This document shows positions 1 to 7,274 of a stretch of 7,274 bases of DNA, piece by piece (positions within the stretch are counted from its first letter, which is position 1; every line of letters starts with the position of its first letter). The notes beneath the pieces are model-generated. The model ran no database searches. It was not told where the DNA came from and saw nothing but the letters and a program-made list of their open reading frames with translations. Location of the stretch: assembly GCA_016176845.1 (NCBI GenBank), contig JACOWJ010000042.1:1-7274 (forward strand), written 5' to 3'. The translations under genes and the position numbers were made by a program. This DNA is from Nitrospinota bacterium. Lineage in GTDB: Bacteria > 2-12-FULL-45-22 > JACOWJ01.

Positions 1-889
1 GCCCTGCTCCACGTTGGTCCCCTCCATCCGGACCACAATGGGCACCTGGATATGCAGGTTCTTGGCGGCCTCGACCACCCCTTGAGAGAAGACGTCGCAG
101 CGCAGGATCCCGCCGAAGATATTGATCAAGACTGCCCGGACGTGGGAGTCTGAGAGCAGGATCCGGAAGGCGTTCTCCACCATCTCGGCGGTGGCCCCTC
201 CGCCCACGTCCAGGAAGTTGGCCGGTTCGGACCCGGCATGCTTAATGATATCCATGGTCGCCATGGCCAGTCCAGCCCCGTTGACGATACAGCCCACGGT
301 GCCATCCAGCTTGATATAGTTCAAACGGTGCTTGGAGGCCTCGATCTCGAGGGGTTCCTCCTCGGTCAGGTCCCGGAGCTCCTTCAGCTCCGGATGGCGA
401 TAAAGGGCGTTGTCATCGAAGTTGAGCTTGGCATCCAGGGCCAGCAGGCGCCTATCTTCGGTTACGACCAGGGGGTTGATCTCCGCCAGGGAGCAGTCCT
501 TGGCCACGAAAGCCCGGTAGAGGTTGAGGATGAACTGCGTGGCCGAGTTGATTGACGATCCCCAGATAGAGCTCCCGGGCGATCTTCATCCCCTCCTCGA
601 TCAAGACCCGCCGCACGATCCTTCCCTCCGGGCCAGTTTGCGGGGTAACCAGAGGCTTGCCCAGCATCGCGGCGGCGATCCGCTCCGCCTCCTCGGGGCT
701 CGAGGCCAGCTTGATCCCGCCCCCTTTGCCCCTTCCGCCCGCGTGGATCTGCGCCTTCACCACCACGGTTCCTCCCAGGCTCTCGGCCACCTTCCTGGCC
801 TCAGCGGGACTGAAGGCCACTCCCCCCGGCGGGACCGCCACGCCGAACTGGGACAAGATCTCCTTGCCCTGATGCTCGTGGATCTTCAT
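1..889 (-). pseudogene. sucC: Succinyl-CoA synthetase (ADP-forming) beta subunit, internally deleted and frameshifted; 3' end outside window
   Basis: SucC forms the ATP-grasp/CoA-ligase beta subunit of the TCA-cycle enzyme that interconverts succinyl-CoA and succinate with ATP formation. The ATG at 889 begins [12 protein letters not shown] and runs through the ATP-grasp element [15 protein letters not shown] to the ELYLGIV segment, about 112 codons. The frame then changes. A second frame, open from about 552 to the window edge, reads [12 protein letters not shown], then [36 protein letters not shown] and [11 protein letters not shown], all standard SucC landmarks. Compared with E. coli SucC recalled from memory, about 60 residues that should lie between these blocks (the FMASTEGG region onward) are absent. 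The unshifted frame stops at 452, giving a 145-aa product with a foreign tail. About 30 C-terminal codons lie beyond position 1. The ATG overlaps the fumarase beta stop as ATGA and has an AAGGAGG ribosome site (894-900). Family identity is very secure; whether the lesion is biological or an assembly error cannot be told here. Confidence 0.9.
545..556 (-). other. Deletion/frameshift junction inside sucC
   Basis: Codons down to 556-554 (Val of LYLGIV) match the upstream SucC frame. Codons from about 543 downward (ATQFIL) match the downstream frame. The join must lie in these few bases. The preceding codons frame +Asn-Gln and the alternative Ile-Asn-Ser have no counterpart in SucC, so the exact breakpoint is not resolved. 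Confidence 0.8.
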
Positions 890-1449
890 GATGCCTCCTT
901 GCTATATTTTTTCCTACCCTCGCGGTACAGATCTCCTCCCCGGGCGTCATTGATGACCACCACGGGGAAATTCTCGACTTCCAGACGAACGATCGCCTCG
1001 GGCCCCAGGTCCTCATAGGCCACAACCTGCGCCTTTTTCACTGTCTTGGCCAGCAGGGCCGCCGCTCCCCCGGTTGCCCCAAAATAGACGCATTTATGTT
1101 GAACCATCGCCTCGATCACCTGGGGAGAACGGGACCCTTTCCCGATCATCCCCTTGAGCCCGCGGGCGATCAATTTGGGAGAATAAGCATCCATGCGGGA
1201 GCTGGTGGTGGGGCCGATGGAGCCGATTACCTTCCCCGGCTTGGCGGGGGAGGGACCGGCGAAATAGATCACCTGGCCTTGAAGGTCAATGGGCAGCTCC
1301 TCGCCCCGGTCCATCAAGGCCACCAGGCGGGCGTGGGCCGCATCTCGAGCGGTGTAAAGGATGCCATTCAAGAGGACGCGGTCCCCGATGCGCAGCCTCG
1401 ACACATCTTCTTCCGATAAAGGGGTGGTCAGTACAATGGGCTCGGTCAT
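886..1449 (-). CDS. Fumarate hydratase class I, beta subunit (Fumerase_C)
   Basis: This is the small (C-terminal-type) subunit of the two-subunit, oxygen-sensitive [4Fe-4S] fumarase that hydrates fumarate to malate in the cytoplasm. The 187-aa product has the usual family length and landmarks: TARDAAH (33-39, holding an Asp of the active-site region), GPTTSSRMD (79-87, substrate-carboxylate binding loop), GMIGKGSRS (100-108), [11 protein letters not shown] (123-133) and YEDLGPEAI (145-152). I chose the ATG at 1449 because GGAGAGGA lies 5 nt upstream and family members start just before the PLSEEDV segment. A longer reading from GTG at 1539 adds 30 residues with no family resemblance. The stop overlaps the sucC start (ATGA). 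The gene sits 93 nt behind the alpha subunit. The homologous L(+)-tartrate dehydratase beta subunit (TtdB) is the main alternative; the sucC neighbour favours fumarase. Confidence 0.93.
894..900 (-). promoter_or_regulatory. Strong ribosome binding site for sucC
   Basis: AAGGAGG on the minus strand, 4 nt before the ATG at 889 and inside the last codons of fumarase beta. Together with the ATGA stop/start overlap it fixes the sucC start and suggests coupled translation. Confidence 0.8.
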
Positions 1450-1454
1450 CTCTA

Positions 1455-1472
1455 TCCTCTCCGCCGCGGAGA
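1455..1472 (-). promoter_or_regulatory. Ribosome site of fumarase beta inside a short perfect dyad
   Basis: The minus strand carries TCTCCGC-G-GCGGAGA at 1472-1458. Folded as a 6-bp stem with a 3-nt loop it would cover GGAGA of the GGAGAGGA ribosome site (1462-1455). The dyad is seen directly; any effect on translation is inference. Confidence 0.4.
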
Positions 1473-1542
1473 CCCCTGCCATTGGACACGGGGAGAAGCA
1501 GCGGCTTTGGTTTGAAAGGGAAGTGCGGTTCTCGCGCACATC

Positions 1543-2382
1543 TTAAAGGGTTACTTCCTTGTGTCGGCTTGCATGGCAGTTGATATTCACCGCAACGGGC
1601 AAGCTGGCGATGTGGCAGGGACGAACTTCGATGTGGACTCCCAGGGCGTAGGTCCTTCCCCCCAGCCCCTGAGGACCCATCCCCAAGGCGTTGATCTTCT
1701 CCACGAGCTCACGCTCCACGGCTGCCAGCCCCGGGTCTGGATTCTCCGAGCCCAGAGGCCGCAGCAGGGACTTCTTGGCCAGCAGGGCCGCCACCTCAAA
1801 GTTGCCCCCGATCCCCACTCCCACGATCACCGGCGGGCAGGGATTGGGGCCCGCCTCCGAGGCCTTCTGGATCACGAACCGCTTGATCCCCTCCAGACCA
1901 TCGGACGGCTTCAACATAGCCACGCCGCTCATGTTCTCGCTGCCTCCGCCCTTCGGGGCTACCTTGATCCGGAGCTCCTCCCCTGCCACCAGCTCCATAT
2001 GGAGGATGATCGGGGTGTTGTCGCCGGTGTTCTTCCGGGTGAAGGGGTCGCAGACCGACTTGCGCAGGTAACCCTCCCGGTAGCCCTGTCTCACCCCCTC
2101 TTCGATCGCCTCTGACAGGAGACCTCCCTCGAGGTGGACTTCCTGGCCCAGCTCGGCGAAGACCACCGCCAGCCCCGTGTCCTGGCAGATCGGGACGCGC
2201 TCTTCGCGGGCGATCCGGGCGTTCTCCTTGAGCTCCTGCAGGATGGCGATTCCAGTGGGCGACTCCTCGGTCTCCAGGGCCCGATCGAAGGCGGCCAGCA
2301 CATCCTCCCCGAGGTCGTAATTGGCCTCCATGCAGAGGCCTTTCACCGCTTCAATGATTTTGGATACATGGATGGTTTTCAC
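1543..2382 (-). CDS. Fumarate hydratase class I, alpha subunit (Fe-S, Fumerase)
   Basis: This is the large subunit of the two-subunit class I fumarase. It carries the [4Fe-4S] cluster whose open iron site acts on fumarate/malate. The 279-aa product matches the family length. The three expected cluster cysteines are visible: Cys66 in ICQDTG, Cys182 in NPCPP and Cys269 in INCHASRH. Other signatures are RKNTGDNTP (116-124), KGGGSENMS (144-152) and GVGIGGNFE (188-196). Translation starts at GTG 2382 with GGAGAGG (2387-2393) 4 nt upstream; the N terminus (KTIHVSKIIEAVKGLCMEAN) matches family starts, and the nearest in-frame ATG would cut off helix 1. It is first in the operon, about 47 nt downstream of the predicted transcription start. 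L(+)-tartrate dehydratase alpha (TtdA) is a paralogous alternative, less likely beside sucC. Confidence 0.95.
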   Translation of the reverse strand: MKTIHVSKIIEAVKGLCMEANYDLGEDVLAAFDRALETEESPTGIAILQELKENARIAREERVPICQDTGLAVVFAELGQEVHLEGGLLSEAIEEGVRQGYREGYLRKSVCDPFTRKNTGDNTPIILHMELVAGEELRIKVAPKGGGSENMSGVAMLKPSDGLEGIKRFVIQKASEAGPNPCPPVIVGVGIGGNFEVAALLAKKSLLRPLGSENPDPGLAAVERELVEKINALGMGPQGLGGRTYALGVHIEVRPCHIASLPVAVNINCHASRHKEVTL

Positions 2383-2592: not shown

Positions 2593-4122
2593 ATGGAAAA
2601 GATCTATCTGGACGGAGAGAGCCTTCAGCTGGAAGAAGTGGAGCGGGTAGCTCGATGCCAGGCCCGGGTGGAGATCTCTCCCCATGCCCTGCGGAAGGTC
2701 CAGGAGTGCCGGCGGTATCTCGAAAGAGTGATTGCCCAAGGCTCCGCGATTTATGGCGTCAACACTGGCTTTGGCCACTTGAGCCACGTGCGGATCGATC
2801 CTCAGGATATTTTAACCCTCCAAAGGAACCTGATTTACAGCCACTCGGCCGGCGTAGGTCCCCTCTTTTCCGAGGAAGAAGTGCGGGCCATCATGCTGCT
2901 GCGGGCCCACGTCCTGGCCAAGGGTTACTCGGGCGTGAGGCCCGAAGTGATCCGGACTTTGGTCGAGATGCTCAATCGAAGCGTGATCCCCGAGATTCCC
3001 CAAAAAGGATCAGTGGGGGCCAGTGGCGACCTGGCACCGCTGGCCCATCTGGCTCTGGTCATGATCGGGGAAGGGGAGGCCAGCTATCGGGGGGAGAGGC
3101 TGAGCGGGGCCGAGGCCATGGCTCGCGCTGGGATCGCTCTCCTGGAGCTGCAGGCGAAAGAAGGGCTCTCTCTCATCAACGGCACGCAAGTGATGACCGC
3201 TCTGGGCGTTCTGGCCCTGCTGGCGGGCGAGAGGCTGTGTACTACGGCCGATATCGCGGGGGCCCTGACGCTGGAAGCGGTCAAGGGGACCAATACCCCT
3301 TTCCTCCCGCAGATTCAGCGCCTTCGCCCTCATCCAGGGCAGGCGGCCTGTGCCCATAACCTCATGATCCTCCTGCAGGATAGCGGCATCCTGCTCTCCC
3401 ATAAGTATTGCCCGAAGATCCAGGATGCGTACTCCTTGCGCTGTATGCCTCAAGTGCACGGAGCGGCGCGGGATGCCATGGCTTACGTACGAAAGGTCCT
3501 GGAGGTGGAGGTGAACGCTGCCACCGACAACCCGCTGGTCTTCCCTGAGGAGGATCTCGTCCTGACGGGGGGCAACTTCCACGGACAGCCGGTGTCACTG
3601 GCCCTGGATCTTCTTGGGATGGGGCTGGCAGAGCTGGGCAGCATCTCCGAGAGGAGGATTGAGAATCTGGTGAACCCTACCCTGAGTCATCTGCCCGCCT
3701 TCTTGGTGGAAAGAGGTGGCCTCAACTCCGGCTACATGATGCTTCAGGTTACGGCTGCTGCCCTGGTCTCCGAGAACAAGATCCTGGCATCTCCCGCCAG
3801 CATCGACTCCATCCCCACCTCGGCCAACAAGGAGGACCATGTCAGCATGGGGCCGATCGCTGCTCGCAAGGCCCGGGAGATCTTGGAGAACGTCCAAAGG
3901 ATCCTCGCCATCGAGCTCCTCTGTGGGGCTCAAGGCCTGGAGTTTAGCGACCCCAAGCAGGCCGGCCGCGGTGCGCGAAAGGCTTACGAGATGATTCGCC
4001 GGGAAGTCCCTCCCCTGGTTGAAGATCGGCCACTCTATCGGGAGATCGAGGCCTGCCTCCGCCTGGTCCGAGAGGGCATCATCGTTCAAGAGATACGCAG
4101 GGAGCTTGGGGAATTGAGCTGA
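2593..4122 (+). CDS. hutH: Histidine ammonia-lyase (histidase)
   Basis: Cytoplasmic enzyme that removes ammonia from L-histidine to give urocanate, the first step of histidine catabolism. The 509-aa protein is full length. The GSVGASGDLAPLAH segment holds Ala143-Ser144-Gly145, which cyclise to the MIO electrophile. Active-site residues known from Pseudomonas putida HutH are at equivalent places: Tyr54 (YGVNTGFG), His84, Asn196 (INGTQ), Gln277, Tyr280 and Arg283 (QDAYSLR), Phe329 (GGNFHGQ) and Glu414 (NKEDHVSM). The Ser83-His84 pair in YSHSAG is the histidine-type selectivity dyad; tyrosine lyases have His-Leu and phenylalanine lyases Phe-Leu there. The ATG at 2593 fits the promoter at 2517-2545, but no clear Shine-Dalgarno precedes it. 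No other hut gene is visible: the left neighbours are divergent TCA genes and the right neighbours envelope genes. Function is very likely; a role outside catabolism cannot be excluded. Confidence 0.96.
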   Translation: MEKIYLDGESLQLEEVERVARCQARVEISPHALRKVQECRRYLERVIAQGSAIYGVNTGFGHLSHVRIDPQDILTLQRNLIYSHSAGVGPLFSEEEVRAIMLLRAHVLAKGYSGVRPEVIRTLVEMLNRSVIPEIPQKGSVGASGDLAPLAHLALVMIGEGEASYRGERLSGAEAMARAGIALLELQAKEGLSLINGTQVMTALGVLALLAGERLCTTADIAGALTLEAVKGTNTPFLPQIQRLRPHPGQAACAHNLMILLQDSGILLSHKYCPKIQDAYSLRCMPQVHGAARDAMAYVRKVLEVEVNAATDNPLVFPEEDLVLTGGNFHGQPVSLALDLLGMGLAELGSISERRIENLVNPTLSHLPAFLVERGGLNSGYMMLQVTAAALVSENKILASPASIDSIPTSANKEDHVSMGPIAARKAREILENVQRILAIELLCGAQGLEFSDPKQAGRGARKAYEMIRREVPPLVEDRPLYREIEACLRLVREGIIVQEIRRELGELS

Positions 4123-4194
4123 CCTGGGCGATCGGCATCCAGGATTCCATTGCAATGTCCACGGGGGAGTGTTATCTTCCTAATGAAATACGGG

Positions 4195-4226
4195 TTTCCT
4201 CAGTGGGGATCCCAAAAGTATAAAAT
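4195..4226 (+). promoter_or_regulatory. Possible promoter of the TonB-like/repeat-protein pair
   Basis: The 156-nt gap after hutH turns AT-rich and contains TATAAA/TAAAAT overlapping at 4219-4226, with only a poor -35 (TTTCCT at 4195-4200). Transcription from here would begin about 45-50 nt before the chosen start at 4279. The short CCTGG/CCAGG repeat just after the hutH stop (4123-4143) has no T-run and is not a convincing terminator, so read-through from hutH is possible. Confidence 0.35.
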
Positions 4227-4278
4227 TGAGGGCGATAAGTTGTTCAGTGTGATAGAAGATTTAATGGAAGAGACTATC

Positions 4279-5583
4279 ATGAAAGTTAGGGGAAGGCCGG
4301 GAATTCTGGTCGAAATGAAGGGCATGCTGCTCTTTTCCTCGCTAGCCCATGCCCTGGCCATGGGGGTGATGGTCCTCCTTGTGGCTTACCTCCCTCATCG
4401 GGAGCCCTCCGTGGTCCCGATATACACCGTAAACTTGGTGGAATTGCCCAGTCCCACCCCCAAAAGCGAGCCCAAGAAAAAGGTTCGGCCTATCCGAGAG
4501 GTTACCCCCAGGAGGGAGAAGGCTAAAGAAGTCTTCCTCCCGAAACCGAAGGAAGAAAAGCCCAGGGAGGTTCAGAACCGGAGCAAGCCCGCCCCCATGG
4601 CCCAGGCGAAGCTCCTGCCCGAACCGAAAGCGGCGCCCTCCCAGGAAGCCGTTCAGGCCACGCCCAAGGAGACCCTGAAGCCTTCTGCTCAGGAGAGCGC
4701 CCCACCCCCAGTACAACCCAAGTCGTGGTCGGTGGCCCAACAGCTCCCTGTTTCCCCTAACCCGGGCTCCGCTCCCCCCTCCGCCTTGCGGAAGCTCCTT
4801 TCCTCAGAGCCTGCCCAGGGCTCGGGCGCCAACCCCTCTTCCACCCTCCTCGCTCAGCCTCCCGGACGCCCTCAAAAGGAAGAGATCTACCGGCCCTCGG
4901 CCCCTTCGGCCCGTGAGAGCGGCCCTCCTCCCCGAGAGGTAGGAGGGCTCCAGGAGGGAGATCCTACCGGGCGAGGGCTGACGAAGGGCCGGGGGCCGGC
5001 CTCGGGCATCGATCGCCTTTCTGCCGGCTTGGGCGGCACAGAGGGCCAGGTCGCCGGAGGGACGGGAGGAGGTTGGGGAGGAGGCCATGGAGGGAAGGGC
5101 TCGGGCTTTCAGGGCGGCAAGACGGGGAGGGGCGCTCCCGGTGGGCTGGGAGGAGGGGGGACCGGCACAGGATCGTACGGAGAAGGCACGGGCTTTCGGG
5201 CTCCTTCCCGACCCATCTCCATTGGCCCCCCTTCTAAGGGGGGACTCGGGGGCCTCGATGGCGCGCCAGGGGGGGGAAAATATATCCCCTTGAATACCGA
5301 CGATCCCGATTTGGGTCCCTATATGGCCTACCTGAAGGAGAGGATCGAGCGCTTTTGGTCCAGCCCGGAAGGGGCGGAAACCCTGAAGGGCGACGTGGTG
5401 CTGGCTTTCACTGTGGAACGGGACGGCAGTCTCTCGCGGGCCCGCGTGATAACCTCTTCTGGATATCGCATCCTCGACCGGGCGGTGGTAGATGCGGTAA
5501 ATCGTGCCGCTCCCTTCCGCCCTATTCCAGAAGAGATCAAAGAAAAAAGGCTCTCGCCCATTGGGACCTTTCATTACAAATAG
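4279..5583 (+). CDS. TonB/TolA-like energy transducer with Pro/Lys-rich and Gly-rich periplasmic region
   Basis: Proteins of this kind are anchored in the inner membrane, contact a TolQR/ExbBD-type proton-driven motor, and reach through the periplasm to act on the outer membrane. From ATG 4279 (GGAAG 8 nt upstream) the product is 434 aa. A short basic N terminus precedes a membrane segment at about 15-38 with Ser20-x3-His24, the spacing of the functional Ser-His pair in E. coli TonB. YTVNLVELP follows, typical of the family. Residues ~54-240 are rich in Pro, Lys, Glu and Ala; ~243-333 are Gly-rich. The C-terminal domain (~342-434) has YLKERIERFW, GDVVLAFTVERDGSL, SSGYRILDRAVVDAV and APFRPIPEE, closer to TolA/TonB_2 patterns than to classical TonB. 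The frame is open back to TTG 4150 (with ATG at 4183 and 4264), but that stretch is AT-rich and holds the possible promoter. No exbB/exbD/tolQ/tolR is in the window. It probably forms an operon with the repeat gene 24 nt downstream. Confidence 0.85.
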   Translation: MKVRGRPGILVEMKGMLLFSSLAHALAMGVMVLLVAYLPHREPSVVPIYTVNLVELPSPTPKSEPKKKVRPIREVTPRREKAKEVFLPKPKEEKPREVQNRSKPAPMAQAKLLPEPKAAPSQEAVQATPKETLKPSAQESAPPPVQPKSWSVAQQLPVSPNPGSAPPSALRKLLSSEPAQGSGANPSSTLLAQPPGRPQKEEIYRPSAPSARESGPPPREVGGLQEGDPTGRGLTKGRGPASGIDRLSAGLGGTEGQVAGGTGGGWGGGHGGKGSGFQGGKTGRGAPGGLGGGGTGTGSYGEGTGFRAPSRPISIGPPSKGGLGGLDGAPGGGKYIPLNTDDPDLGPYMAYLKERIERFWSSPEGAETLKGDVVLAFTVERDGSLSRARVITSSGYRILDRAVVDAVNRAAPFRPIPEEIKEKRLSPIGTFHYK

Positions 5584-5607: not shown

Positions 5608-6780
5608 ATGAAGCGGATCGCCTTGGCCCTGGCCATCGGGTTGGGCCTAACTCTAATCAAAATGGGAGCAGGGCATGCCGAGGAGGTCAGGACCTCTCCG
5701 CAGGCGGGGGTTTATCTTTATTGGAGGAACAACCAGCTGGTGCGCCAGGAACGAGACGTCGACGGAGATGGAAAGATCGATGCCTGGTACTATTATCGAG
5801 AGGGAAAGCTCGACCACCAGGAGGAGGACAGCAACCACGATGGCCGGCCAGACGTTTGGACTTATCATGTTGACGAGAAGGTGGACAAACAGGAGCGGGA
5901 CACCGATAGCGACGGTCGGGTGGATCTCTGGCTCTTGATGGATTTTACGGGAGCTGTCGAGCGGAGGTGGCAGGATACCAACCGGGATGGCAAGGTCGAT
6001 GTCTGGACTTATTACAAAAACGGAGAGATCGTCAAAGAAGAGCGGGATCGAAATGGAGATAAAGAGGTAGACCTCATCCTTCATTACCAAAAAGAGAAGC
6101 CCATCCGGCAAGAGGAAGATACCGACTATGATGGCCGGATGGATCTGTGGACCTACTATGACGAACAGGGTCGAATTGCACGACAAGAGGATGATACCCA
6201 TCAAGACGGCAAGATCGATGCGATTTACTTTTACCAGGAAGGCAAACTGGTCAAGAAAGAGGCCGATACCAGTGGTAACGGCAGAGTTGGCCTGAGGGAA
6301 TTCTATGAGAAAGGGAAGCTGGTCAAAAGAGAGCTGGATTCCAGCAAGGATGGGCGAATGGACTCCTGGTCCTTTTATGATCAGAACGGGCAACTCGTCA
6401 GGGTTGAAGAGGATCTGAACGAAGACGGCCTGAAGGAGACCATCTTTCTTTATAAGGAGGGAAAACTGGTCTCCAAGGCCGAGGATTCCAACGCCGACGG
6501 AAAGCCCGATGTCTGGACCTATTTCCAGGCAGAAGAGGTCGTTCGGGAGGAGCGGGATACCGATGGAGATGGGAAGGCCGATCTCGTTTCTTATTTTCAA
6601 GGGGGACGGCTGGTCCGCAAAGAGGTCGATTCCAACCACGATGGCCGCCCGGATATCCTTTCCTTTTATGAAGGGGGGGAGCTAACGCGTCAGGAGGAGG
6701 ATCTCGATTTTGACGGGCATGTGGACCGCAAACTTTACTATCAGGAAGGCAAGCTCGTGAAGCAGGAAAAGTTCAACTAA
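5608..6780 (+). CDS. Exported repeat protein: 14 tandem DxDxDGxxD / aromatic-hairpin repeats
   Basis: I do not recognise a named family. The 390-aa protein starts with a Sec signal peptide: MKR, a hydrophobic core (4-18) and a likely cut after Ala24 (AGHA/EE). From about residue 35 the rest is repeats: a half unit (YLYWRNNQLVRQER), then 14 units whose first Asp lies at 50, 74, 98, 123, 147, 171, 196, 220, 244, 269, 293, 317, 341 and 365. The consensus is D-[ST]-[ND]-x-D-G-[KR]-x-D-x-W-x-Y-Y-x-x-G-x-L-V-[KR]-x-E-[ED]. The first nine positions look like the calcium loop of EF-hand, dockerin or thrombospondin-3 repeats, without the usual position-12 Glu; the second half resembles MORN_2/YwqK hairpins. 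Units 5 and 8 have weakened loops (DRNGDKEVD, DTSGNGRVG). It lies 24 nt after the TonB-like gene, with only a weak ribosome site, suggesting one operon. A calcium-stabilised periplasmic or outer-surface scaffold is inference. The protein ends on a complete repeat with no anchor or sorting domain. Confidence 0.9.
   Translation: MKRIALALAIGLGLTLIKMGAGHAEEVRTSPQAGVYLYWRNNQLVRQERDVDGDGKIDAWYYYREGKLDHQEEDSNHDGRPDVWTYHVDEKVDKQERDTDSDGRVDLWLLMDFTGAVERRWQDTNRDGKVDVWTYYKNGEIVKEERDRNGDKEVDLILHYQKEKPIRQEEDTDYDGRMDLWTYYDEQGRIARQEDDTHQDGKIDAIYFYQEGKLVKKEADTSGNGRVGLREFYEKGKLVKRELDSSKDGRMDSWSFYDQNGQLVRVEEDLNEDGLKETIFLYKEGKLVSKAEDSNADGKPDVWTYFQAEEVVREERDTDGDGKADLVSYFQGGRLVRKEVDSNHDGRPDILSFYEGGELTRQEEDLDFDGHVDRKLYYQEGKLVKQEKFN
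5710..6777 (+). repeat. In-gene tandem repeat array, 72/75-nt period
   Basis: The coding repeats step by 24, 24, 25, 24, 24, 25, 24, 24, 25, 24, 24, 24 and 24 residues, so the DNA period is 72 or 75 nt. At DNA level the units are well diverged, but some blocks persist, such as CAACCACGATGGCCG at both 5832-5846 (unit 2) and 6633-6647 (unit 13), and CGATGTCTGGAC in units 4 and 11. This points to an old array kept by selection on protein, not a freshly expanded one. Confidence 0.9.
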
Positions 6781-6897: not shown

Positions 6898-7067
6898 GGA
6901 CAGGGGTGGGCCATTTGCGCTCACTGAAACCTATCTTCAGAGCCAGTGCGAGCGCTGTTGATCGTCGGGAAAACCGCTCATTTAGCTCTGAAACCGAGGC
7001 AGGGTATTGAGGTGGGCCCTGGCAATGAATATATTTGAGGATTTTTTGGTTAGGAGGAGAAGGGAAA
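6898..7067 (+). other. Long leader with nested inverted repeats
   Basis: Between the predicted transcript start and the TTG start lies non-coding sequence with an outer 8-bp dyad, TTCAGAGC (6936-6943) with GCTCTGAA (6985-6992), and an inner 5-bp dyad, GAGCG (6950-6954) with CGCTC (6975-6979). The octamers GGTGGGCC (6905-6912, 7011-7018) and CTGAAACC each occur twice. I looked for the conserved cores of cobalamin and cyclic-di-GMP riboswitches and did not see them. It could equally be an operator region or chance structure. Confidence 0.35.
7052..7057 (+). promoter_or_regulatory. Ribosome binding site selecting a TTG start
   Basis: AGGAGG at 7052-7057, followed by AGAAGGG, lies 10 nt before TTG 7068. 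This is the strongest ribosome site near the right end and is the main reason for starting the last gene at TTG and not at the in-frame ATG 7113. Confidence 0.65.
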
Positions 7068-7274
7068 TTGATCAGGCATAAAAGGCGTGAAGCTGTCGTT
7101 CTATTCTCTGCGATGCTGTTCATTGCAGGGACGCTATGGGGCAAGGCCCTAAACACTGCGGAGAAGTTCCTGTTCGGTTCTGCAGTCCCAAAAGTTGAAG
7201 CAGCAACCATCGTCCCTTCTGCTCATCCCTTTGGCTCAGACCTCATCGTGAAGATTGTCAAAGAAGAAAAACCG
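7068..7274 (+). CDS. Membrane-anchored or secreted protein of unknown function, 5' end only
   Basis: Sixty-nine codons are open from TTG 7068 to the window end. The product begins with a basic patch (IRHKRRE) and a hydrophobic stretch (AVVLFSAMLFIAGTLWG, about residues 9-25), so it is exported or anchored by an N-terminal signal. The visible remainder is a polar segment starting KALNTAEKFLFGSAVP and ending in a Lys/Glu-rich KIVKEEKP. No conserved domain can be recognised in this fragment, and I assign no function. The start is supported by AGGAGG upstream and by the positively charged residues before the hydrophobic core; starting at ATG 7113 would drop both. It has its own likely promoter and a long leader, so it is probably not part of the repeat-protein operon. 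Confidence 0.65.
   Translation, partial: MIRHKRREAVVLFSAMLFIAGTLWGKALNTAEKFLFGSAVPKVEAATIVPSAHPFGSDLIVKIVKEEKP

What the first reader, a model, noticed from the sequence alone, without database searches (positions are those of the whole stretch)
5608..6780. Array protein fusing calcium-loop motifs with MORN_2-like hairpins
Fourteen near-perfect 24-25-residue units make up almost the whole mature protein. Each joins DxDxDGxxD to W-x-YY-x-x-G-x-LV. Known calcium-loop repeats (dockerin, thrombospondin-3, EF-hand) lack the aromatic hairpin, and MORN_2/YwqK repeats lack the acidic loop. The mixture suggests a calcium-stabilised solenoid or elongated fibre in the periplasm or on the surface.
Basis: partly seen in the sequence, partly recalled or inferred. 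Interest (0 to 1): 0.6.

Follow-up and report, generated by a model that had tools for sequence, protein, structure and literature searches.

The report
Calcium-loop sheet protein beside TonB
The gene encodes a secreted protein made of 14 repeated hairpins, predicted to line up as one long flat sheet with a likely calcium-binding loop between neighbouring hairpins; in many bacteria the same kind of gene sits directly beside a TonB-type gene, whose products carry energy across the cell envelope, which points to an unrecognised partner of such systems.

Summary
The repeat array is real: 14 units of exactly 24-25 residues fill residues 50-388 of a secreted 390-aa protein. The units are regular but not near-perfect (38% mean identity, no DNA tandem repeat). 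AlphaFold2 gives a confident single-layer antiparallel sheet, one hairpin per unit, with the DxDxDGxxD loop joining hairpins. Its best fold matches are single-layer sheets (engineered OspA, YD/Rhs proteins, MORN1).

The unit is not wholly undescribed. NCBIfam 'Lsa25.6 family adhesin' matches six stretches (E=1.6e-24), below its curated cut-off.

The new result is context. In the window the gene lies 24 nt downstream of a TonB/TolA-type gene, the only TonB_C hit in its incomplete genome. Among 30 genomes, 16 of 48 relatives lie within 3 kb of a TonB_C gene, against 0.37 expected. Many are in ExbB-ExbD-TonB-repeat operons, and two sampled TonB-dependent receptors carry the repeats at their N-terminus. 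Best explanation: a periplasmic, probably Ca-stabilised partner of a Ton/Tol-like module, in the position tolB holds in tolQRA-tolB-pal. The partnership is inferred, not shown.

The parts
5608..6780 (+). REP gene: secreted 14-unit calcium-loop/beta-hairpin repeat protein, 390 aa
   Evidence: AF2 model
5608..5679 (+). Signal peptide, residues 1-24, cleavage probably after GHA
   Evidence: sequence; residues 1-31 have pLDDT under 50
5707..5754 (+). N-terminal hairpin without a calcium-type loop (residues 34-49)
   Evidence: strands 34-38 and 44-49 in the model
5755..6771 (+). Fourteen 24-25-residue units (residues 50-388): 9-residue DxDxDGxxD loop + two-stranded hairpin
4150..5583 (+). TonB/TolA-type energy-transducer gene (N-terminal TM, Pro/Gly-rich linker, TonB C-terminal domain) immediately upstream; 24 nt between its stop codon and the REP start codon. 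Start codon uncertain (TTG at 4150 is mechanical)
   Evidence: Pfam TonB_C E=9.9e-11, TonB_2 E=8.3e-10; TIGR01352 E=4.2e-12; the only TonB_C hit in its genome
5383..5577 (+). TonB_C domain of the upstream gene (residues 412-476)

Best explanation
The protein is exported to the periplasm and folds as one continuous single-layer antiparallel beta-sheet of 15 hairpins. A 9-residue DxDxDGxxD loop on one edge joins each hairpin to the next and most likely binds Ca2+, stiffening the sheet. It works as a partner of a Ton/Tol-type machine: an ExbB-ExbD (TolQ-TolR) proton motor moves a TonB/TolA-like rod, and the repeat protein is a periplasmic or outer-membrane-side element on which that rod acts. This is comparable in position to TolB in tolQ-tolR-tolA-tolB-pal, or to an accessory of TonB-dependent receptors. 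SHOWN (computed): the repeats, the predicted fold, the signal peptide, the conserved linkage to TonB/ExbB/ExbD genes across many lineages, and fusions to TonB-dependent receptors. INFERRED: calcium binding, periplasmic residence, physical contact with TonB (by which surface is unknown), and the cargo or task.
For: Fold: AF2 mean pLDDT 88 (277 residues at 90 or above), every unit a hairpin; the same strand pattern appears from the single sequence, pLDDT 72. Fold matches are single-layer sheets: engineered OspA 2fkj Z 13.6 over 299 residues (rmsd 8.5), MORN1 6t68 Z 8.1 over 185 residues, Rhs/teneurin by Foldseek at E about 1e-10. Metal loop: in 209 units of 12 relatives, D1 is 87%, N/D3 73%, D5 72%, G6 88%, D9 74%; the invariant columns of an 18-protein alignment are all loop Asp/Gly. 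Linkage: a TonB_C gene lies within 3 kb of 16 of 48 REP genes in 30 genomes, 0.37 expected, Poisson P about 4e-21. TonB-ExbB-ExbD-REP arrangements occur in L003, L004, L006, L007, L026, L063, L064, L073, L075, L076, L082, L089. TonB is usually immediately upstream on the same strand. A TonB-dependent receptor gene lies in the same 14-18-kb stretch in L028, L066, L067, L073, L075, L076, L082, L089, L097. Repeats form the N-terminal part of TonB-dependent receptors in two genomes (L030, L077). In G215 a canonical tolQRA-tolB-pal set is separate (L105), so the REP module is additional.
Against: About two thirds of sampled REP genes have no nearby TonB_C gene, and several carry other contexts (lipoproteins, DUF4340, AhpC/TSA, zinc-ribbon fusions), so the repeat is not exclusive to TonB systems. 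The window contig has no ExbB/ExbD, and the only ExbB-family hit in this 68%-complete genome is MotA-like; no TonB-dependent receptor plug was found in it or in G215. No conserved TonB-box-like N-terminal peptide is seen. The linkage P value treats genomes as independent. No complex could be modelled and no metal-binding data exist.
Confidence: 0.5

Rival explanations
1. It is a surface adhesin or scaffold of the Lsa25.6 type: an elongated secreted sheet exposed outside the cell that binds extracellular polymers or surfaces, with TonB next to it only because both are envelope genes.
For: NF050087 Lsa25.6 family adhesin matches at E=1.6e-24 and matches many relatives. Lsa25.6 is described as a surface-localised recombinant protein that binds laminin, plasminogen and fibrinogen (PMC7662565). 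Several relatives are lipoproteins by sequence.
Against: The match is below the curated cut-off of 150 bits. Host-ligand binding is irrelevant to these environmental lineages. Linkage to TonB/ExbB/ExbD is about 40 times expectation. Fusions place the repeats N-terminal to the plug of TonB-dependent receptors, normally the periplasmic side.
Confidence: 0.2
2. It is a periplasmic metal-binding or metal-buffering protein of a TonB-dependent metal uptake route, with 14 loops per molecule holding Ca2+ or another ion such as a lanthanide.
For: Up to 14 DxDxDGxxD loops, 51 Asp and 40 Glu in the mature chain, pI 4.6. TonB-dependent receptor genes accompany many relatives. Weak EF-hand/lanmodulin sequence echoes (E=0.17; 20 bits) reflect the loop motif only.
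Against: The 9-residue loop is of the structural calcium type. No receptor gene was found in G000 or in the 96%-complete G215, which has the module. The lanmodulin matches are not significant.
Confidence: 0.15
3. The repeat is a generic Ca-stabilised spacer used in many unrelated secreted proteins; the TonB-linked subfamily has no shared task beyond that.
For: Diverse fusions and contexts: zinc ribbon plus TM (L100), DUF4340 (L087), AhpC/TSA (L096), lipoproteins with a Gly-rich N-part (L002, L004).
Against: The recurrent adjacent, same-strand gene order with TonB in at least ten family-level lineages needs a functional reason.
Confidence: 0.15

Closest known systems
Lsa25.6 family adhesin (NCBIfam NF050087, Leptospira)
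   Same: Closest described sequence family; six stretches of this protein match (E=1.6e-24).
   Different: Scores 86.6 bits against a cut-off of 150; modelled on a 196-position protein; known for host-ligand binding; no TonB link known to me.
MORN / MORN_2 (YwqK) repeats
   Same: 23-24-residue hairpin units in a single-layer twisted sheet; MORN1 Z about 8.
   Different: MORN has a 6-residue connecting loop and GxG/YxGEW motifs (PMC7725318); here the connector is a 9-residue acidic loop. MORN_2 scores 19.1 bits against a cut-off of 29.6.
FG-GAP / VCBS calcium-loop repeats
   Same: The DxDxDGxxD loop sits between beta-strands; FG-GAP_3 matches the loop (15.7 bits).
   Different: FG-GAP repeats build beta-propellers with longer blades; here the prediction is an open single-layer sheet.
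YD / Rhs repeats and engineered OspA
   Same: Predicted single-layer or shell-forming hairpin meander; top Foldseek and VIA-align matches.
   Different: No significant Pfam RHS_repeat match, no metal loop, different proteins and functions.
TolB in the tolQ-tolR-tolA-tolB-pal operon
   Same: Secreted beta-rich repeat protein encoded directly after the TolA/TonB gene of a TolQR-type motor.
   Different: Not a TolB: no TolB_N or PD40 match; a genuine tolB exists separately in G215.

Membership tests
Lsa25.6 family adhesin (NF050087) | NCBIfam curated cut-off of 150 bits | tested here: not met
   86.6 bits, E=1.6e-24
Lsa25.6 family adhesin (NF050087) | Surface location and binding of laminin/plasminogen/fibrinogen | not testable with these tools
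   Reported for Lsa25.6 (PMC7662565); not computable here
MORN_2 (PF07661) | Pfam gathering score | tested here: not met
   19.1 bits against 29.6
MORN repeat | 23-residue unit: two 6-residue strands, 5-residue turn, 6-residue connecting loop, GxG motif | tested here: not met
   24-25 residues, about 2-residue turn (about 5 in the three 25-residue units), 9-residue acidic connector, no GxG (definition PMC7725318)
FG-GAP_3 (PF13517) | Pfam gathering score | tested here: not met
   15.7 bits against 26.9, loop only
DUF6802 (PF20615) | Pfam gathering score | tested here: not met
   21.2 bits against 27
Single-layer beta-sheet fold class (OspA/MORN/YD) | Open, one-layer antiparallel sheet of sequential hairpins | tested here: met
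   Prediction only: pLDDT 88, Z 13.6 over 299 residues to engineered OspA 2fkj
Calcium-binding DxDxDGxxD repeat | Acidic ligands at loop positions 1, 3, 5 and 9 | tested here: met
   D1 14/14, D/N/S 3 13/14, D5 13/14, D9 12/14
Calcium-binding DxDxDGxxD repeat | Measured Ca2+ binding | not testable with these tools
Ton/Tol-type energy-transduction module | Linked TonB/TolA C-terminal-domain gene | tested here: met
   window 4150-5583; 16 of 48 relatives against 0.37 expected
Ton/Tol-type energy-transduction module | Linked ExbB/TolQ and ExbD/TolR genes | tested here: inconclusive
   Present beside many relatives but not on the window contig; the genome is 68% complete
TolB | TolB_N plus PD40 propeller domains | tested here: not met
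   No match up to E=1

The most novel reading that the evidence does not exclude
The repeat protein is a dedicated component of a distinct, widespread Ton/Tol-like module (ExbB-ExbD-TonB-REP), in which a calcium-stiffened single-layer sheet takes the place of TolB or a receptor as the element that the TonB rod pulls on.
Probability: 0.35. Interest if true: 0.75.

Novelty: new variant of a known kind. Interest (0 to 1): 0.52.

Why it matters
TonB and Tol systems are the main known ways in which Gram-negative bacteria use inner-membrane energy at the outer membrane, and their list of periplasmic partners is short. A secreted repeat protein encoded next to TonB in many lineages would add a new partner and a testable mechanism. 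It would also give a function to a repeat otherwise known mainly as a putative Leptospira adhesin, and a natural calcium-loop single-layer sheet would be useful to protein designers.

Tried and rejected
Near-perfect or recently amplified array: rejected (38% unit identity, no DNA tandem repeat). Known solved homologue: none at a convincing E-value by sequence; lamin and lanmodulin matches are not significant. Beta-propeller: 14 units could make seven four-stranded blades, but the model is an open sheet and relatives have from about 7 to over 30 units at the same 24-25 spacing. Exclusive link to TonB-dependent receptors: rejected, since G215 has the module but no plug domain. Specially conserved terminal units or a TonB-box-like N-terminus: not seen (and inspection of mature N-termini). 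Canonical Leptospira Lsa25.6 context: no genome over the NF050087 cut-off in the sample, so not checked. Literature searches for a TonB/MORN/EF-hand-type link found nothing relevant. Plasmid collection: only weak relatives in Gordonia and Gloeothece.

Full report
WHAT IS THERE. The ORF 5608-6780 (+) encodes 390 residues. Residues 1-24 are a Sec-type signal peptide with no lipobox. Residues 34-49 form one hairpin without a loop, and residues 50-388 are fourteen units of 24 (eleven) or 25 (three) residues. The tolerant loop motif occurs 14 times, against a mean of 0.12 in shuffled sequence. The units are regular in length, but their sequences average only 38% identity and no DNA tandem repeat is detectable, so the array is old rather than freshly copied. 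The mature chain is acidic (pI 4.6, 51 Asp, 40 Glu) and has no cysteine.

FOLD. AlphaFold2 with seven sequences gives mean pLDDT 88.1 and pTM 0.74, with 277 residues at 90 or above. Each unit is two 6-7-residue strands, and the nine-residue DxDxDGxxD stretch is the connector to the next hairpin. With no alignment at all the same strands appear, at mean pLDDT 71.7. Foldseek and VIA-align 2 point to single-layer sheets: engineered OspA (2fkj, Z 13.6, 299 residues, rmsd 8.5), MORN1 proteins (Z about 7-8), the beta-meander domains of GtfA/TarM/SdgB glycosyltransferases (Z 9-11 over about 100 residues), and the shells of Rhs/teneurin proteins (Foldseek E about 1e-10 with low TM-scores). The high rmsd values show that global twist differs; the class of fold, not the exact shape, is what matches.

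METAL LOOP. Across 209 units from 12 relatives, position 1 is Asp in 87%, position 3 Asn/Asp in 73%, position 5 Asp in 72%, position 6 Gly in 88% and position 9 Asp in 74%. In an alignment of 18 relatives the only invariant columns are loop Asp and Gly. From established knowledge of FG-GAP, dockerin and thrombospondin-3 repeats, this pattern binds Ca2+. Here that is an inference.

KNOWN FAMILIES. Pfam gives only sub-threshold hits: DUF6802 21.2 of 27 bits, MORN_2 19.1 of 29.6, FG-GAP_3 15.7 of 26.9. NCBIfam NF050087, the Leptospira Lsa25.6 adhesin family, hits six stretches at E=1.6e-24, 86.6 bits, below its cut-off of 150, and also hits many relatives. Lsa25.6 is reported as surface-localised and able to bind laminin, plasminogen and fibrinogen (PMC7662565). 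The repeat is therefore partly described already, though this protein does not meet the curated definition.

DISTRIBUTION. Relatives occur in Candidatus Methylomirabilota and several Deltaproteobacteria MAGs and in 43 of 386 genomes sampled across the domain, 35 of 327 genera. Array length runs from a handful of units to over 30. Unit spacing stays at 24-25 in nearly all.

GENE CONTEXT, THE NEW RESULT. The gene directly upstream (4150-5583, same strand, 24 nt gap) carries a TonB C-terminal domain and is the only TonB_C match in the genome, which is 68% complete. The same neighbour appears beside the relatives in L002-L007, G001 (L026), G006 (L028), G058 (L070), G095 (two copies), G154, G215, G226, G233, G235, G293 (three copies), G344 and G355, and beside a fragment in G074. 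In most, TonB is immediately upstream on the same strand. ExbB/TolQ and ExbD/TolR genes complete the set in about a dozen loci, for example L026 in the only other genome held from the window's own phylum. Counting conservatively with the Pfam model alone, 16 of 48 REP genes in 30 genomes have a TonB_C gene within 3 kb, against 0.37 expected from TonB density (Poisson P about 4e-21). I counted these adjacencies by hand from the coordinate tables, and the test treats genomes as independent; even by family-level lineage there are about ten to a dozen separate occurrences. Nine loci also hold a TonB-dependent receptor gene in the same 14-18-kb stretch. In two genomes the repeats are the N-terminal part of such a receptor, ahead of the plug (L030, L077). 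Four loci (L002, L003, L004, L007) carry a second repeat protein with a Gly-rich N-part, a lipoprotein by inspection, and a vWA-domain protein.

INTERPRETATION. Gene order ExbB-ExbD-TonB-REP parallels tolQ-tolR-tolA-tolB. In Tol and Ton systems the TolA/TonB C-terminal domain captures partners by beta-strand augmentation (PMC8928145). G215 has a canonical tolQ-tolR-tolA-tolB-pal set elsewhere (L105), so the REP module is an additional machine. I think the repeat protein is most likely a periplasmic, calcium-stabilised partner of the neighbouring TonB, at about 50%. Which surface is used, and whether the job is transport, envelope tethering or receptor assistance, is unknown. TonB-dependent receptors are not obligatory: none was found in G215 (96% complete) or in the window's own genome.

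LIMITS. No complex prediction, metal test or localisation test was possible. The own genome is incomplete, and its only ExbB-family hit is MotA-like. About two thirds of sampled relatives have no TonB neighbour, so the repeat itself is a more general module of which the TonB-linked proteins are one large group.

VERDICT. A real, widespread repeat of a known structural class, partly covered by an existing family, with a strong and apparently undescribed link to Ton/Tol-type modules. The statement that the link is undescribed rests on a limited open-access literature search.

Noticed in passing
window 7035-7274 (+): Start of an exported protein whose visible end (ATIVPSAHPFGSDLIVKIVKEEKP) looks like the start of an HtrA/DegP-type protease; it is cut by the contig end and no family matched the 80 residues.
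   Followed up: partly
window 1-2382 (-) and 2593-4122 (+): Class I fumarate hydratase in two subunits (1543-2382 and 886-1539), a succinyl-CoA ligase beta-like gene (1-889, from the translation only), and an aromatic amino acid lyase probably histidine ammonia-lyase (2593-4122): ordinary metabolic genes.
   Followed up: partly
L002:1837-3465, L003:5133-6620, L004:1493-2650, L007:917-2077: A second repeat protein with a Gly-rich (zipper-like) N-terminal part, apparently a lipoprotein, directly after the first, in clusters that also hold a vWA-domain protein, TonB and ExbB: a possible outer-membrane-anchored partner.
   Followed up: partly
L104:4905-8165 (G001): A separate ExbB-ExbD-TonB cluster with a vWA protein but no repeat protein, suggesting that the vWA protein and the repeat protein are alternative or additional partners of such motors.
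   Followed up: partly
L063:2227-4332, L066:7994-10174: FG-GAP_3-containing proteins of about 700 aa encoded close to the repeat gene; a related ORF lies near the repeat gene in L067.
   Followed up: no
L100:6404-7579 (G036): The same repeats fused behind a double zinc ribbon and a transmembrane segment, an unusual topology for this module.
   Followed up: no
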